Of a stretch of DNA of 64,000 bases, positions 37,676 through 58,189 are shown piece after piece. Source of the DNA: Burkholderiaceae bacterium (GTDB taxonomy: Bacteria; Pseudomonadota; Gammaproteobacteria; Burkholderiales; Burkholderiaceae). Every line of letters begins with the position of its first letter. Positions within the stretch are counted from its first letter, which is position 1. The notes beneath the pieces are model-generated. The model worked only from the letters and a program-made list of their open reading frames with translations. It did not search any database and was not told the origin of the DNA. The position numbers and the translations under genes were made by a program. Where the stretch lies: the NCBI GenBank assembly GCA_021166835.1, contig JAJPEN010000002.1, positions 21,413 to 85,412 on the forward strand. Direction: 5' to 3'.

Positions 37676-38686
37676 GTGCGCATCGCGATCTTCGGCGCCG
37701 GCGCCTGGGGAACGGCGCTCGCCTGCCACGCGGCTTCGTCGCACGAGGTGCTGCTGTGGGCCCGCGAGCCGTCGCTCGTGCAGGCGATCCGTCGCGAGCG
37801 GCGCAACGAGCGCTACCTGCCGGGTTTTGCGCTCGACCAGCGCATCGGCGCCGAAGCCGATCTCGACGCCGCCTGCCGCTGGCTGGGCGAGGCCGGCCCG
37901 TCGCTCGCCGTGATCGCCACGTCGGTTGCCGGACTGCGTCCGACGCTCGCTGCGCTCGATGGGCGGCTGTCCGGCGCCGGCTGTGCCGGGGCGGTGTGGC
38001 TGTGCAAGGGGCTCGAGGCCGACAGCGGGCTGCTGCCCCACGCGGTGGCGGCGCAGACGCTGCGATCGGTGCCGGGCGGCGTGCTCTCCGGACCCAGTTT
38101 CGCGCAGGAGGTGGCGGCCGGCCTGCCGGTGGCGCTGACCGTCGCCTCGCGCGATGCTTCGCTGCAGGCCGCGGTCGTGCAGGCTTTTCATCACGGCGCT
38201 GCCCGCATCTACCGAAGCGACGACGTCGTCGGCGTCGAGCTGGGCGGCGCGCTGAAGAACGTGATGGCGATCGCCGCCGGCATCTGCGACGGCCTCGCGC
38301 TCGGCCAGAACGCGCGGGCGGCGCTGATCACGCGCGGGCTGGCCGAGATCGCGCGGCTGGGCGCGGCGCTCGGCGCGCGTCCCGAGACGTTCATGGGACT
38401 CACCGGGCTGGGCGATCTCGTCCTCACCTGCACCGGCGATCTCTCGCGCAACCGGCGCGTCGGGCTCGCGCTGGCTTCGGGCGAGCCGCTGCCAGCGATC
38501 GTCGCGCGGCTCGGGCACGTTGCCGAGGGCGTCGCCTGCGCGGCGGCGGCCGATGCGCTCGCCGTCGCGCGCGGCGTCGCCATGCCGATCGTCGAAGCGG
38601 TGAACGCCGTATTGCACGGCGCGCTGGGGCCGCGCGAGGCGGTGGTCTCGCTGCTGTCGCGGGAACCGAAGGCGGAATCAGGCTAG
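37676..38686 (+). CDS. gpsA: Glycerol-3-phosphate dehydrogenase [NAD(P)+]
   Basis: A 336-residue enzyme making sn-glycerol-3-phosphate for phospholipids. The Rossmann motif [13 protein letters not shown] is at ~4-16, then [20 protein letters not shown], the catalytic-Lys segment [18 protein letters not shown] and [17 protein letters not shown]. The GTG start at 37676 lies two bases after the SH3 gene stop. Its TAG stop is part of the left arm of a perfect palindrome. Confidence 0.95.
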
Positions 38687-38732
38687 TACGCCGACCCGGA
38701 GGTATCGCAACACCTCCGGGTCGGCGTACTAG
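38683..38732. terminator. Perfect 21-bp palindrome, likely bidirectional terminator between convergent genes
   Basis: The arm 38683-38703 is exactly complementary to 38712-38732, with an 8-nt loop (ATCGCAAC). The gpsA stop TAG (38684-38686) is at the base of the left arm and the histidine kinase stop TAG (38731-38729) is at the base of the right arm. No T-run follows on either strand, so it is an unusually strong hairpin without the standard tract. Confidence 0.7.
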
Positions 38733-46996: not shown

Positions 46997-47863
46997 ATGG
47001 CTTCGGGTGCGCACACGCAGGCGCCTTACTACTTCATCCCCCATCCGTCGAAATGGCCCGCGGTGGGCGCGCTCGCGCTTATCTTCTTCGGCTTCGGGCT
47101 GGCGAGCTGGTTCAACGGCGCGTCCTTTGGCCCGTACCTGTTCTGGATCTTCGTGGCGATCATGATCTACATGCTCGTCGGCTGGTTCAGCACCGTGGCG
47201 CGCGAGTCCGAGCGCGGCCTGTACAGCGACCGCGTCGACGTGTCGTTCCGCTGGTCGATGAGCTGGTTCATCTTCTCCGAAGTGATGTTCTTCGGCGCCT
47301 TCTTCGGCGCGCTGTTCTACGCGCGGACGATCTCGATGCCCTGGCTGGGCGACCTCGACCACAAGATGGTGCTGTGGCCCGATTTCCAGGCGGTGTGGCC
47401 CAACGCGGGGCCCGCCGGCACGGTCGAACCCTTCCGCACGATCGGGCCGTGGCCGATTCCGACGATCAACACCGCGCTGCTGCTCAGCTCGGGCGTGACG
47501 CTGACCATCGCGCACCATGCGCTGAAGGAGGCGCGCCGGGCGTCGACCATCTTCTGGCTGGCGGTCACGGTCCTGCTGGGCTTCACCTTCCTCGGCTTCC
47601 AGGTCTACGAGTACGCGCATGCGTACGAAGAGCTGAACCTGAAGCTCACTTCGGGCATCTTCGGCTCGACCTTCTTCATCCTGACGGGCTTCCACGGTTT
47701 CCACGTGTGCGTGGGGGCGATCGCATTGAGTGCGGTGCTGTTCCGCACGATCAAGGGGCATTTCACGCCGGAGCACCACTTCGCGTTCGAGGGGGCGGCG
47801 TGGTATTGGCACTTCGTGGACGTGGTCTGGCTCGGGCTCTACGTCGTCGTGTACTGGTTGTAG
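46997..47863 (+). CDS. ctaE: Cytochrome c oxidase subunit III
   Basis: A 288-residue, seven-helix subunit. YYFIPHPSKWPAVGALALIF, WSMSWFIFSEVMFFGAFFGA, FYARTISMPWLG, GFHGFHVCVGAIAL and a C-terminal WYWHFVDVVWLGLYVVVYWL are characteristic. ATG at 46997 follows GGGAGA. Its end is followed by the nested inverted-repeat region, which separates it from the rest of the assembly genes. Confidence 0.96.
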   Translation: MASGAHTQAPYYFIPHPSKWPAVGALALIFFGFGLASWFNGASFGPYLFWIFVAIMIYMLVGWFSTVARESERGLYSDRVDVSFRWSMSWFIFSEVMFFGAFFGALFYARTISMPWLGDLDHKMVLWPDFQAVWPNAGPAGTVEPFRTIGPWPIPTINTALLLSSGVTLTIAHHALKEARRASTIFWLAVTVLLGFTFLGFQVYEYAHAYEELNLKLTSGIFGSTFFILTGFHGFHVCVGAIALSAVLFRTIKGHFTPEHHFAFEGAAWYWHFVDVVWLGLYVVVYWL

Positions 47864-47885
47864 CGGGGTTTCTCTGTTCGCGCCG

Positions 47886-48179
47886 GGTCGCCGGGCTTCG
47901 GGCCGCCGAGGGGCGCACGGGCCGCGGCCAAGGCGGCCGGGCCGAAGCGCCGGCGGGCGGCGATGTCGCGGCCCCCGCTTCGCGGGGGCTTCCCTCGCCT
48001 TCCTCGTCAGCGGCGGGAGGCCGGCAAACTCGGCCCCTGCGGGGCCTCAGACATGCCGGCCTCCTGATCGCCGCTTCCTTCGGAAGCGCTCGGCGCGCCA
48101 AAAGCCGCCCGCCGGCGCTTCGGCCCGGCCGCCTTGGCCGCAGCCCGTGCGCCCCTCGGCGGCCCGAAACCCGGCGACC
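47886..48179. repeat. Nested inverted-repeat element 1 (76-bp arms around a 142-bp core)
   Basis: Arm 47886-47961 and arm 48104-48179 are inverted copies of each other with 2 mismatches in 76 bp. The core between them (47962-48103) is found again, inverted, in element 2. The core holds three hairpins: GCCCCCGC-TTC-GCGGGGGC (47971-47989), a long imperfect stem at 48010-48074, and GCTTCC-TTC-GGAAGC (48073-48087). No gene is supported in it. It begins 22 bp after the ctaE stop. Confidence 0.9.
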
Positions 48180-48317
48180 CTCACGGCCAAGGTGTTCGGC
48201 CGCCGCAGCCAGCAGCCGACTCCTCCCGAATGCTTTTTATTCTTTGAACACGATCGGCGTCCCGCTCGACGCCGAGGCGCGGCGCACGAAGCGATTCGAA
48301 CACCGCGACATCGAGGG

Positions 48318-48517
48318 GCGAGCGTGGGGGACGGCAGTGCGGGCGGCTTTGTCGCGCCGAGCGCTTCCGAAGGAAGCGGCGAAAAAGGAGGCCGGCATGT
48401 TTGAGGCCCCGCAGGGGCCGAGTTTGCCGGCCTCCCGCCGCTGACGAGGAAGACGAGGGAAGCCCCGCGAAGCGGGGCCGCGACATCGCCGCCCGCACTG
48501 CCGTCCCCCACGCTCGC
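48318..48517. repeat. Nested inverted-repeat element 2 (perfect 30-bp arms around an inverted copy of the same core)
   Basis: Arm 48318-48347 and arm 48488-48517 are perfect inverted copies (30 of 30). The core (48348-48487, 140 bp) is the reverse complement of the element 1 core at roughly 93 percent identity. The GC hairpin has lost one base from each side, keeping the pairing. The arms share only their innermost nine bases (GCGGGCGGC) with those of element 1. The 138 bp between the elements (48180-48317) hold nothing I recognise. Confidence 0.9.
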
Positions 48518-48557
48518 ACCGGCGAACACAGAGACAGGCGCTTCGCGCGACGAAACC

Positions 48558-48767
48558 TCAGCGACCGACCGGCACGCCGGTCGGGTGGATCCACCCCATA
48601 TACTGCGCGAACAGGATGAACGCGAACAGCGCCACCGAAAACCCCACGCGAAAGCCCAGCGCCCGCATCGTGTTGCGCGTGCGCCCGCGGTCACGCACGA
48701 GGAAGAACAGCGCGGACGCGAGGCTTCCGATGATCAGTACGAAGGCGAAGGCGACGATCCATTTCAC
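48558..48767 (-). CDS. DUF2909-family twin-helix membrane protein
   Basis: A 69-residue protein with two helices (WIVAFAFVLIIGSLASALFF; VGFSVALFAFILFAQYMGWI) joined by a basic loop (RDRGRTRNTMRALG). This is the DUF2909 pattern found beside SURF1 in Burkholderiales. It is on the opposite strand to the oxidase genes and has ATG at 48767. Probable oxidase assembly accessory; the function is not demonstrated. Confidence 0.82.
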   Translation of the reverse strand: MKWIVAFAFVLIIGSLASALFFLVRDRGRTRNTMRALGFRVGFSVALFAFILFAQYMGWIHPTGVPVGR

Positions 48768-48868
48768 GGAAGAAGGCTCCGAGGGCCGACCTTCGATTCT
48801 AGTTCCGCCACCGGCTGCGGGTCTGCTCCGAGCGGGCCCGTGCTGACGAAGCGGGGTTCGACGCCGGC

Positions 48869-49693
48869 GTGACCAGCGGCCCGAGGAATTCGCGTGCCCG
48901 TTTTCGCGCCTGGGCGCCGACGCTCGCGGCGCTCGTCGTCGTCGTGCTCACCGTCTCGCTCGGCAACTGGCAGCTGCGGCGCGCCGACGAGAAGCGCGCA
49001 CTGCAGGCGCAGCGCGACGCTGCCGAGCGCGACGCGCCGATCGACCTGAGCGCTTCGGGCAACGACGCCGACGCGCTCGACGGGCGCCGCGTTCGGGTTC
49101 GCGGGCGCTTCGTGTCAAAATTCGAGGTCTTCATCGACAATCGGACCCACCGGGGCGTCGCCGGCTTTCACGTGCTCTCGCCATTGCGCCTCGCCGGTTC
49201 CGATTCGCATGTGCTGGTGCTGCGCGGGTGGGTGGCTTCCGATCCGCGCGAGCGTTGGCGCGTTCCGCGGGTGCCGACTCCCGAGGGTGAGGTGCAGGTC
49301 GAGGGCATCGCGCAGCGCGAGCTGACGCATACGCTGGAGCTGGGCCGCACGCCCGAGCCCGGGCCCGACGACCGCATCTGGCTCAATGTCGATCTCGATC
49401 GGTATCGTCGCTGGTCGGAGCTCGCGGTTCGGCAGCCGATCGTGCGCGAGCTGGCGCCGCCGCAGACCTCCGCCGGCGACTTCGACGACGGGCTCGTGCG
49501 CGACTGGCCGCAGCCGGGAGGCGACGTCGAGAAGCACGTCGCCTATGCGTTCCAGTGGTACTCGATGGCAGCGCTCGCCGCCGGGCTGTGGATCTGGTTC
49601 GTGGCGCTCGCGCGCTGGCGCAGGCGTTCACGCGACGGCGACGGGCACGGCGACAGGGACAGCGGCAGGGACAGCGACGCGTTGCGCAGATGA
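48869..49693 (+). CDS. SURF1-family cytochrome oxidase assembly protein
   Basis: A 274-residue SURF1 (Shy1) protein thought to help haem a insertion into subunit I. An N-terminal helix (TLAALVVVVLTVSLGNWQL with the family's GxWQxxR) and a C-terminal helix (WYSMAALAAGLWIWFVAL) flank a periplasmic domain with VRGRFVSKFEVFIDNR and VLVLRGWVASD. The tail is an Arg/Asp/Gly repeat. GTG at 48869; the stop overlaps the next ATG. Confidence 0.92.
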   Translation: MTSGPRNSRARFRAWAPTLAALVVVVLTVSLGNWQLRRADEKRALQAQRDAAERDAPIDLSASGNDADALDGRRVRVRGRFVSKFEVFIDNRTHRGVAGFHVLSPLRLAGSDSHVLVLRGWVASDPRERWRVPRVPTPEGEVQVEGIAQRELTHTLELGRTPEPGPDDRIWLNVDLDRYRRWSELAVRQPIVRELAPPQTSAGDFDDGLVRDWPQPGGDVEKHVAYAFQWYSMAALAAGLWIWFVALARWRRRSRDGDGHGDRDSGRDSDALRR

Positions 49694-55671: not shown

Positions 55672-55701
55672 GGCTCCTCCCCCTTCCGGCCGACCCTTCC
55701 A

Positions 55702-55787
55702 GCTGCCCCTTTCGGCTGCCCCCTTCGGCTGCCCCCTTCGGCTGCCCCCTTCGGCTGCCCCCTTCGGCTGCCCCCTTCGGCTGCCCG
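55702..55787 (+). repeat. 13-bp tandem minisatellite downstream of maiA
   Basis: GCTGCCCCCTTCG occurs five times without change from 55715 to 55779, preceded by one unit with a single substitution (55702) and followed by a partial unit. The 3' flank (CCGAAGGG) is complementary to part of the unit. The perfect units imply recent expansion. The 256 bp between maiA and the next gene hold nothing else recognised. Confidence 0.95.
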
Positions 55788-55927
55788 ACCGAAGGGTGGC
55801 CTACCCCGACCGGCGGATGGCGCTCGCCAGTCGCCCCGGCATACGATGGGGCACCGCTGCCGACGCTGTTTCGTGCTGTTTCGCATCGCGCGGCCCGGCT
55901 TCCTGACCGCCATTGCAAGGTGCCCCG

Positions 55928-56692: not shown

Positions 56693-58189
56693 TCAGTCGA
56701 GCAGCGCCCCGGCGAACTCCTCGGCCGAGAAGGCCTGCAGGTCGTCGATCTTTTCCCCGACGCCGATGAAATAGACCGGAATCGGCCGCTCGCGCCGAGT
56801 GAACGCCAGCGCGGCGAGCGCGCCCCCTTTCGCGGTGCCGTCGAGCTTCGTGACGATCAGGCCGCTGAGCGGCACCGCCTCGTCGAAGGCCTTCACCTGC
56901 GCGAGCATGTTCTGTCCGGTGTTGCCGTCGAGCACGAGTAGGGTCTCGTGCGGCGCGCCTTCCATCGCCTTGGCCACGACACGACGGATCTTGCGCAGCT
57001 CTTCCATCAGGTGCGTCTGGGTGGGCAGCCGACCCGCGGTGTCGATGATGACGATGCCGGTGCGGCGCGCGCGGCCCGCGTGCACGGCGTCGAAGGCGAC
57101 GGCAGCCGGATCGCCGCCCTGCTGCGCGATGACGTCGACCCGGTTGCGCGAGCCCCACTCGGCGAGCTGCTCGCGGGCCGCGGCGCGGAAGGTGTCGCCG
57201 GCGGCGAGCAGGATCGACTTGCCTTCGCGCTGCAGATGGTGCGCGAGCTTGCCGATCGAGGTCGTCTTGCCGGCGCCGTTCACGCCGGCGATCATCATCA
57301 CCAGAGGCTCGGCCGCGTCGATGTCCATCGGCTTCTCGAGCGGCATCAGCAGATCGACGATCAATGCGCGCAGCGCGAGCCGCACCTGCTCGGCGCCGGC
57401 CAGCCGCTCGCGGCGAACGCGCTCCTGCAGGCGCTGCATCAGCCACTGCGTGGTCGCCACGCCGGCATCGCTGGCGATCAGCGCTGTTTCCAGCTCGTCG
57501 AAGAGCGCATCGTCGACCTGCACGTTCGAGAACAGGCCGGCGAGGTTGCCGCGCGTGCGCGACATTCCCTCGCGCAGCCGCTTCACCCAGGTGTTCCGCT
57601 CGGCCTGCGTCAGCGTGACGATCGCGTCGCCCGAGGGAAGGACGATCGCTTCCGGGCGGGCCAGCACGTCGGCCGTATAGAGGCTGCCGTAGAAGGCGGT
57701 CGGAGCGGGTTCGGCGGGTGCTTCGGCGGCCGCCTCGTGGACGGGCTCCGCCGCCGCCTCCCCGGAGGGCTCGCCGGCGCTGAGTGCCGCGGCTGCAGCC
57801 TCGGCCGACTCGGTCCTGTTCTCCGGCTCCGGTGCAGCGGCTTCGGCGGCCTCGGCGGGCGGCGATTCCGGTTCCGGCGCGGCCGGCTTCGGTTCCGGCG
57901 CGGCCGGTTGCGGTGCCGGTGCGGGCGGTTGCGGTTCCGGTGCGGGCGGTTGCGGTTCCGGTGCGGCCGGCTTCGGTTCCGGCCCGCTCGGCTGCGGTTC
58001 CGGCGCGGCCGGCTGGAGCACCTCCGCCGGATAGAGCATTTCCGGCGGATACAGGCTCTGCGCGGGCAGTCCGAGGCTCGGGGGCGCGGCTGCGGCCGTC
58101 GGCGGAGCGGTGCCGGACGATGCCGGATCGTCGGGGGAAGGGGGGGATTCGGCCTGTGAGGGCCTCTTTCGACGCAGGAATCCGAACAT
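56693..58189 (-). CDS. ftsY: Signal recognition particle receptor FtsY
   Basis: A 498-residue SRP receptor GTPase. The start (MFGFLRRKRPSQ) is followed by an acidic, Pro/Glu/Ala-rich A domain built partly of seven-residue repeats (PEPQPPA/PEPKPAA). The NG domain has G1 GVNGAGKTTSIGKLAHHL, DTFRAAAREQL, G3 DTAGRLPTQ, G4 VTKLDGTAKGG and the closing FIGVGEKIDDLQAF. It brings ribosome-nascent-chain complexes to the Sec translocon. Divergent from the M16 peptidase pair, as in many proteobacteria. Confidence 0.96.
   Translation of the reverse strand: MFGFLRRKRPSQAESPPSPDDPASSGTAPPTAAAAPPSLGLPAQSLYPPEMLYPAEVLQPAAPEPQPSGPEPKPAAPEPQPPAPEPQPPAPAPQPAAPEPKPAAPEPESPPAEAAEAAAPEPENRTESAEAAAAALSAGEPSGEAAAEPVHEAAAEAPAEPAPTAFYGSLYTADVLARPEAIVLPSGDAIVTLTQAERNTWVKRLREGMSRTRGNLAGLFSNVQVDDALFDELETALIASDAGVATTQWLMQRLQERVRRERLAGAEQVRLALRALIVDLLMPLEKPMDIDAAEPLVMMIAGVNGAGKTTSIGKLAHHLQREGKSILLAAGDTFRAAAREQLAEWGSRNRVDVIAQQGGDPAAVAFDAVHAGRARRTGIVIIDTAGRLPTQTHLMEELRKIRRVVAKAMEGAPHETLLVLDGNTGQNMLAQVKAFDEAVPLSGLIVTKLDGTAKGGALAALAFTRRERPIPVYFIGVGEKIDDLQAFSAEEFAGALLD
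57864..58010 (-). repeat. In-frame 21-bp tandem repeat in the ftsY A domain
   Basis: Seven 21-bp units from 57864 to 58010 encode variants of a PEPxPxA heptad on the minus strand. Units differ by a few substitutions. The repeat lengthens the poorly conserved linker and leaves the GTPase intact. Confidence 0.85.

What the first reader, a model, noticed from the sequence alone, without database searches (positions are those of the whole stretch)
47886..48517. Two nested inverted-repeat elements: a shared inverted core inside unrelated, self-matching flanks
Core B (142 bp, 47962-48103) recurs inverted at 48348-48487 (~93% identical). Each copy is bracketed by its own inverted repeat: 76-bp arms with 2 mismatches in copy 1, and perfect 30-bp arms in copy 2. 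The two arm sequences are unrelated except for the innermost nine bases (GCGGGCGGC). Thus the core seems to be a unit of about 160 bp with 9-bp ends, while the DNA just outside it has been duplicated in inverted orientation each time. Ordinary transposition leaves short direct duplications, so this may be a fold-back element, a palindrome-targeting insertion or a hairpin-templated duplication. I do not recognise a described family.
Basis: partly seen in the sequence, partly recalled or inferred. Interest (0 to 1): 0.82.

Follow-up and report, generated by a model that had tools for sequence, protein, structure and literature searches.

The report
Hairpin repeats with rewritten arms
Just behind genes in a group of bacteria sit large DNA hairpins whose centre stays alike while the long stem around it is replaced on both sides at once, which suggests that one side of the stem is copied from the other.

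Summary
In detail: two inverted heads, 94% alike, one on a 77-bp stem, one on a perfect 30-bp stem. It is not isolated. Model R1, built from 21 heads, matches 20 of 74 genomes of the family and 30 of 399 of the order. Rfam gave no credible match. The head is a three-way junction whose helices covary. Of copies with called neighbours, 73 of 85 follow a same-strand gene and 56 of 82 lie between convergent genes.

The stem is the striking part: arm sequences differ from copy to copy. At 19 of 26 orthologous sites the arms are no more alike than unrelated ones, although flanks and heads align (64). Arms pair almost only by Watson-Crick rules (3079 pairs, 8 G-U; RNase P control 7.2% G-U; 66, 80). 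In 11 of 73 copies the far arm reaches into an inverted copy of the gene's end (shuffled: 16 of 730; 81, 90). Nine-bp ends and a Y1/RAYT link are not supported. Copying explains the pairing, not the speed of change; function is inferred.

The parts
46997..47863 (+). coxC-like gene (cytochrome c oxidase subunit III; name recalled, no family search run), upstream neighbour of copy 1
   Evidence: ORF, own gene caller; homologues
47885..47961 (+). copy 1, gene-proximal (5') arm of the basal stem
   Evidence: I2; starts 22 nt after the stop codon
47962..48103 (+). copy 1, head (type A): three-way junction with P2 hairpin, long P3/P4 and apical hairpin
   Evidence: R1 match 47961-48105, 129 bits, (this copy is in the model); fold
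48027..48053 (+). copy 1, conserved AACTC / hairpin / CTCAGACA apical part
48104..48180 (+). copy 1, distal (3') arm, inverted copy of 47885-47961 with 2 mismatches
48181..48304 (.). DNA between the two elements
48305..48315 (-). copy 2, outer motif CTCGATGTCGC on the distal side of the stem (minus strand)
   Evidence: motif class in 27 of 57 copies; CTCGATGT kept in G075
48318..48347 (-). copy 2, distal arm (perfect partner of 48488-48517)
48348..48487 (-). copy 2, head (type A), inverted relative to copy 1
   Evidence: R1 match 48345-48487, 108 bits, (this copy is in the model); fold
48488..48517 (-). copy 2, gene-proximal arm
48558..48767 (-). small convergent gene, upstream of copy 2 on the minus strand; protein not examined
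   Evidence: own gene caller; its end aligns in G075

Best explanation
A dispersed family of large hairpin elements that stand just behind stop codons, mostly between convergent genes. Each has a conserved multi-helix head on a long basal stem. The stem is not a fixed part of the sequence: its arms are made and renewed at the DNA level by copying the gene-proximal arm backwards onto the distal side (hairpin-primed template switching during replication). The hairpin therefore stays closed while its sequence changes, it can take in the end of the gene, and it can flip or be deleted. Shown: conserved head with covariation, arms that differ from copy to copy, arms rewritten together at most orthologous sites compared, scarcity of G-U in arms, inverted copies of gene ends, position behind genes. 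Inferred: template switching as the route, gene-to-distal direction as the rule, and a job at transcript ends (insulation or 3'-end protection of convergent genes; about 50% likely; a classical U-tract terminator is unlikely). Not explained: why arms change faster than third codon positions.
For: Head covariation: 25 of 47 pairs with changes on both sides, 115 such cells against 33.6 in shuffles, 0 of 500. Arms: 58 distinct of 59 copies, median 36.5 pairs, up to 142. Of 30 orthologous pairs 26 were scored; left out were three with an arm cut by a contig end and one with heads of different type. In 19 of 26 the arm identity (24 nt, without the first 9 nt next to the head) is at or below 69%, the 95th percentile for non-orthologous arms, at 8.8-23.4% third-codon divergence and 71-100% head identity. 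Window copy 2 against G075: head 97%, arm 52%; counted without gaps and with the inner bases, 16 of 23. Pair types in arms of 86 copies (of 89 listed; duplicates and stems under 20 dropped; first 10 pairs skipped, cut at the first break): 3079 Watson-Crick, 8 G-U, 38 A-C, 24 other. RNase P RNA of 18 genomes of the same family: 1913, 153, 9, 38. Distal arm reaching into an inverted copy of the CDS end by 6 nt or more: 11 of 73 copies, nine loci, against 16 of 730 runs with a shuffled distal flank. Same arms (88%) under head type B in one species and A in the other, L234/L179. In-place inversions L241/L259, L236/L184, L180/L248. Position.
Against: In the G070-G072 clade with the window and G075 the contiguous stem has a narrow length range (5-95% range 30-40, median 33) and a shared motif follows its distal arm in 27 of 57 copies (13.9% background), which looks like selected architecture. 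Copying homogenises arms but makes no new sequence, so the speed of change needs a further cause. Mispairs in arms are 38 A-C to 8 G-U on the gene strand, an asymmetry the model does not predict. Seven of 26 orthologous pairs keep recognisable arms (74-88%). In A heads G-U outnumbers A-C 39 to 0, as in an RNA. The exact three letters of the stop codon are kept in only 5 of the 11 gene-end copies, and two of the 11 are weak matches (28/36, 12/16). Distant copies in the order mostly lack the long stem (24 of 26 with 10 pairs or fewer). No RNA or mutation data.
Confidence: 0.62

Rival explanations
1. Structured 3'-UTR RNA: the stem is kept by selection on the transcript, base by base, with compensatory changes.
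For: Strand-specific position behind genes (73 of 85); conserved loops and covariation in the head; in A heads six paired columns show G-U and none A-C; narrow stem length in one clade.
Against: Arms show 0.25% G-U against 7.2% in RNase P of the same family, with A-C more common than G-U; stems of 100-142 pairs in some genomes; gene-end copies; arms rewritten while third codon positions differ by about 9-23%.
Confidence: 0.17
2. Mobile head: the head moves between sites and settles in the loop of existing hairpins, so heads are shared and stems are not.
For: Near-identical B heads on unrelated stems and genome-specific apical hairpins; same stem with different head types; at the coxC junction R1 finds nothing in the 12 relatives' loci searched, and 11 relatives with a called next gene have short gaps.
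Against: 30 orthologous pairs with aligned flanks were found among the loci fetched, so many sites are old; of the absences examined two were deletion remnants and one is ambiguous. Of the 14 gaps that flags as long-stemmed without an element, 13 do hold an R1 match (coordinates for L176), so hairpins without a head are rare there. No Y1 link; other transposases were not searched.
Confidence: 0.12
3. REP/REPIN-type element spread by a RAYT (Y1) transposase.
For: Extragenic, palindromic, in inverted pairs, close to ORF ends as described for REPs (PMC3733652, passages).
Against: Y1_Tnp in 2 of 20 R1-positive genomes, G058 and G080; size and branched head.
Confidence: 0.04
4. Assembly or library artefact that made false palindromes.
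For: Several contigs of G072 end in or next to copies (C58, C122, C152, C255), and G075 C169 ends 240 bp behind its copy.
Against: Copies lie in contigs of 3.25 and 3.7 Mb (G071, G086) and keep a fixed relation to stop codons in many genomes.
Confidence: 0.02

Closest known systems
REP / BIME / REPIN elements (GTAG and CGTC superfamilies; PMC3733652, passages read)
   Same: Dispersed extragenic palindromes, often in dimers, close behind ORF ends and between convergent ORFs
   Different: Here 200-400 bp with a branched head; arms differ from copy to copy and reach 142 pairs; no RAYT link found
MRSC-65-2 motif (PMC11109978, section 13 read)
   Same: Long stem with strong covariation, dozens of copies per genome; its authors allow that the structure matters as DNA
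   Different: Described as a single long stem with UYCCGG repeats, sometimes near a transposase gene; no branched head or gene-end copying is described in that section. Not compared by sequence
Template-switch mutations in RNA genes (PMC8794818, abstract and discussion read)
   Same: Inverted copies that perfect hairpin stems, loop inversions, excess of G-C and U-A over C-G and A-U read from the 5' base (left arms here: G 1502, C 1071, T 322, A 184)
   Different: There mostly short stems and modest numbers of events; here a repeat family with long stems renewed at most sites compared
Structured RNA families of Rfam 15
   Same: Covarying helices, conserved loops
   Different: No credible match for 47400-49000 or for 12 of the 26 distant loci; arms nearly lack G-U
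Intrinsic terminators
   Same: Hairpin just behind the stop codon; the same junction in G071 holds a plain 19-bp, loop-4 stem
   Different: Far larger and branched; a run of 4 or more T within 15 nt behind the distal arm in 1 of 87 copies

Membership tests
REP/REPIN | Short hairpin of 20-40 bp | tested here: not met
   Head of about 130-160 bp plus stem
REP/REPIN | GTAG or CGTC tag at one end | not tested
   No tag search run; CTCGTC is seen inside most type-A heads of A1, not at an end
REP/REPIN | RAYT/Y1 transposase in the genome | tested here: not met
   2 of 20 R1-positive genomes; drafts may be incomplete; the window's own genome is not held
REP/REPIN | Extragenic, behind ORFs, often as inverted pairs | tested here: met
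   pairs
MITE / insertion sequence derivative | Conserved terminal inverted repeats | tested here: not met
   Arms unrelated between copies; a partly shared outer motif exists in one clade
MITE / insertion sequence derivative | Short direct target duplications and clean empty sites | tested here: inconclusive
   Two absences were deletion remnants, one is ambiguous; no systematic search for duplications
Structured RNA element | Helices conserved with compensatory changes | tested here: met
   Heads, (structure taken from the same sequences)
Structured RNA element | G-U wobble accepted in helices | tested here: inconclusive
   Not in the arms (0.25% against 7.2% in RNase P); heads 4.9% (A) and 3.0% (B), in six and three columns
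Structured RNA element | Transcribed and folded in the cell | not testable with these tools
   No expression data
Intrinsic terminator | T-run directly behind the hairpin | tested here: not met
   1 of 87 copies
Template-switch product | Distal arm is an inverted copy of the proximal flank | tested here: met
   Gene-end copies in 11 of 73 copies, 16 of 730 in shuffles
Template-switch product | Single event seen between close strains with one parental arm kept | not tested
   Nearest pairs compared differ at 7.0-8.8% of third codon positions

The most novel reading that the evidence does not exclude
A self-templating class of genetic element: what is inherited is a head that keeps a hairpin open to copying, while the stem is remade from the DNA next to it. 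Stem length would be limited by hairpin nucleases: in genomes with a weak SbcD-like match 0 of 56 stems have 50 or more contiguous pairs, in those without one 15 of 29. That contrast is confounded by kinship and by draft genomes.
Probability: 0.35. Interest if true: 0.88.

Novelty: new variant of a known kind. Interest (0 to 1): 0.76.

Why it matters
How long stems stay perfectly paired while their sequence changes is an old question. This family gives tens of natural replicates per genome in G070 and G071 in which both arms change together, some with the direction of copying marked by a gene end. That makes hairpin-templated copying measurable from sequence alone. Some of these genomes also carry interrupted palindromes of a size that SbcCD attacks in E. 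coli (recalled).

Tried and rejected
A 27-base word of the core in the genome and viral collections: no hit. The element against phages and plasmids: no match at E 1e-5. The idea that the arms are merely flanks of an insert in a shared target was dropped after the ortholog comparison and the outer motif. The idea of a plus-strand RNA stem was dropped for the arms after the wobble count; a first count (26 plus-strand wobbles, 52 minus-strand, 93 transversions) included outer internal loops and the head boundary. Apparent empty sites in L243 and L229 kept parts of an arm or head; the site in L176 holds a tandem repeat and stays ambiguous. Rfam's hits MIR1437, mir-341 and Antizyme_FSE are far below their gathering scores and taken as chance. 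Opposite head orientation in two more ortholog pairs (L181/L247, L147/L148) was not counted as inversion, because those loci hold or may have held two elements. Genes come from a small codon-usage caller of mine trained on five window genes, not from an annotation. The list that marked elements lacked some copies.

Literature: six exact sequence words, and one more, are in no held paper; searches on REP/RAYT, structured RNA, template switching, GC-rich intergenic regions, SbcCD and repeat families listed nothing that I recognised as this family. Read: PMC8794818 (abstract, discussion), PMC11109978 (passages, section 13), PMC3733652 (passages). All other papers were seen as search listings only.

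Full report
What is there. Copy 1 (47885-48180, plus strand) is a 142-bp head between 77-bp arms with two mismatches; copy 2 (48318-48517, minus strand) is a 140-bp head between perfect 30-bp arms; the 160-bp units are 94.4% identical. Other inverted repeats of 22 nt or more listed for the 64 kb are at most 46 nt and 71-85% complementary. Folding z-scores are -18.9 and -11.3. The pair lies between a coxC-like gene ending at 47863 and a small convergent gene ending at 48558.

Other copies. No genome is held for the window. A coxC scan of one-per-species genomes gave a way in; BLASTN of the head in the 74 held genomes of that family hit 14. G071 has 14 long and 6 partial matches. An alignment of 21 heads gave model R1. 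At E 0.01 it matches 20 of 74 genomes of the family, G081 only by a short piece and G058 only weakly, with 29 places in G071 and 31 in G070, pieces included. At E 0.001 it matches 30 of 399 genomes of the order and 13 of 369 of the class, family members included. Only 42, 7 and 8 candidates per genome were scored, so counts are lower bounds. Three head types were seen: A (the window), B and C. Rfam 15 has no credible match for the window region or for 12 of the 26 distant loci.

The head is a real structure. In A1, 95.0% of 928 cells pair; 25 of 47 pairs change on both sides; 115 cells do so against 33.6 in shuffles (0 of 500). Slid controls fall to 39-51% paired, but the structure was derived from the same sequences, which favours it there.

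Arms differ from copy to copy. In G071 the copies read have long stems of unrelated sequence. Over 58 copies the median is 36.5 pairs. In other genomes stems reach 111 (L143), 122 (L144), 124 (L146) and 142 pairs (L154, with a 3-nt gap that makes it count as 32 contiguous pairs). In G070-G072, G075 and the window the contiguous stem is 30-40 bp (5-95% range, median 33; copy 1 of the window is an exception with 77), and a distal motif like CTGGATGTC follows in 27 of 57 copies against 13.9% of random 23-mers.

Arms are rewritten together. Flanking genes identify orthologous sites. Of 30 pairs compared, 26 were scored. In 19 of 26 the arm identity does not exceed the 95th percentile (69%) of non-orthologous arms, while heads are 71-100% identical and third codon positions differ by 8.8-23.4%. 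In G070/G072 'c' the heads are identical over 116 bases and the arms are 54% alike. Window copy 2 against G075 shows the same at 8.8% third-codon divergence; the few bases next to the head are better kept (16 of 23 without gaps). Seven pairs keep recognisable arms. In one of them (L234/L179) the arms are 88% alike but the heads are of types B and A. Heads and arms thus can change independently.

Signs of DNA-level copying. (a) Arms of 86 copies hold 3079 Watson-Crick pairs, 8 G-U, 38 A-C and 24 other. RNase P RNA, found in 19 of 20 genomes asked and aligned from 18 (one short match dropped), gives 1913, 153, 9 and 38. Selection on an RNA stem should tolerate G-U; the arms do not show it. Heads are mixed: A heads 39 G-U to 0 A-C, in six columns; B heads 40 to 5, with 38 of the 40 in one column. 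(b) In 11 of 73 copies with a same-strand upstream gene, nine loci, the distal arm reaches 6 nt or more into an inverted copy of that gene's last bases: 24/25 in L177, 30/32 in L134, 15/15 in L266, 13/13 in L239; the weakest are 28/36 in L183 and 12/16 in L234. The copied stretch spans the stop codon; its three letters are unchanged in 5 of 11 (L151, L187, L231, L239, L266). With the distal flank shuffled, 16 of 730 runs reach as far, all in 5 copies. A coding end is unlikely to derive from the arm, so here copying most likely ran from gene to far side. (c) Left-arm bases are skewed, G 1502 to C 1071 and T 322 to A 184, with G above C in 73 of 86 copies and below in 6; the 40 nt behind 75 other stop codons show 1196 to 1130 and 352 to 322. 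An excess of G-C and U-A pairs is what Monttinen and Loytynoja expect if stems are corrected from the 5' base (PMC8794818, discussion). (d) Heads are flipped in place at three orthologous sites, and two sites have lost most of a head by deletion; both are known habits of palindromes (recalled).

Position. Of 87 copies, 73 of 85 with a called upstream gene follow a same-strand gene. Of 82 with both neighbours called, 56 are between convergent genes, 14 and 10 in tandem contexts, 2 divergent. Other adjacent gene pairs in the same loci are 20 convergent, 49 divergent and 144 tandem. The median distance from stop codon to stem is 23 nt (n = 73). No stem scoring 20 or more was found in 45 divergent gaps. 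A T-run of four or more follows the distal arm in 1 of 87 copies, so these are not classical intrinsic terminators. At the coxC junction 11 relatives with a called next gene have gaps of 69-213 bp and stems of at most 19 bp, against 694 bp in the window; R1 is silent in the 12 coxC loci searched.

Permissive background. A SbcD match above the curated cut-off was found in 1 of 74 genomes, G068, which has no R1 match; 29 more have weaker matches. Contiguous stems of 50 pairs or more: 0 of 56 in genomes with such a weak match (G070, G071, G072, G077), 15 of 29 in genomes without (Mann-Whitney p 0.0005; window not counted). Copies are not independent, genomes are related and many are drafts; it is a lead only.

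Distant forms. In the order the head often follows a short A/T-rich hairpin (ACTTTCTTTG...CAAAGAAAGT) instead of the long stem; 24 of 26 loci have 10 stem pairs or fewer. That hairpin, with the head not tested there, also occurs on replicons of Variovorax, Caballeronia, Paraburkholderia, Chitinibacter, Iodobacter, Pasteurella and Ilyobacter.

Reading. I take this as an old dispersed family of gene-end hairpins whose stems are renewed by hairpin-templated copying. The pairing, the gene-end copies and the flips follow from that. The pace of change does not, and needs a mutation hot spot or copying from further afield. The job of the elements is open; position and strand argue for a role at transcript ends.

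Noticed in passing
arms of 86 copies: Mispairs in arms are 38 A-C against 8 G-U on the gene strand (p 9e-6), as if G-to-A changes on that strand survived more often than C-to-T. No explanation found.
   Followed up: partly
L168-L174, L186, L100, L182: A third head type (C) with a motif like CGCTTGGTCGCGCGG; it shares mainly the apical AACTC/CTCRGACA part with type A. Stems of its own were seen by eye, not counted.
   Followed up: partly
L199-L223; plasmid hits: A short hairpin ACTTTCTTTGCTTCGCCAAAGAAAGT followed by AACCAAAGAAAGGCGACCC stands before many heads across the order and recurs in Pasteurella and Ilyobacter replicons.
   Followed up: partly
L264, L265 (G086): The two members of an inverted pair share much of the junction sequence but differ in the apical hairpin, as if homogenised with each other.
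   Followed up: no
window 38683-38732: Perfect 21-bp stem with an 8-nt loop, terminator-like, unrelated to the element.
   Followed up: no
window 55677-55793 and 57840-58036: Tandem repeats: 13-bp units (CTGCCCCCTTCGG) and 21-bp units.
   Followed up: no
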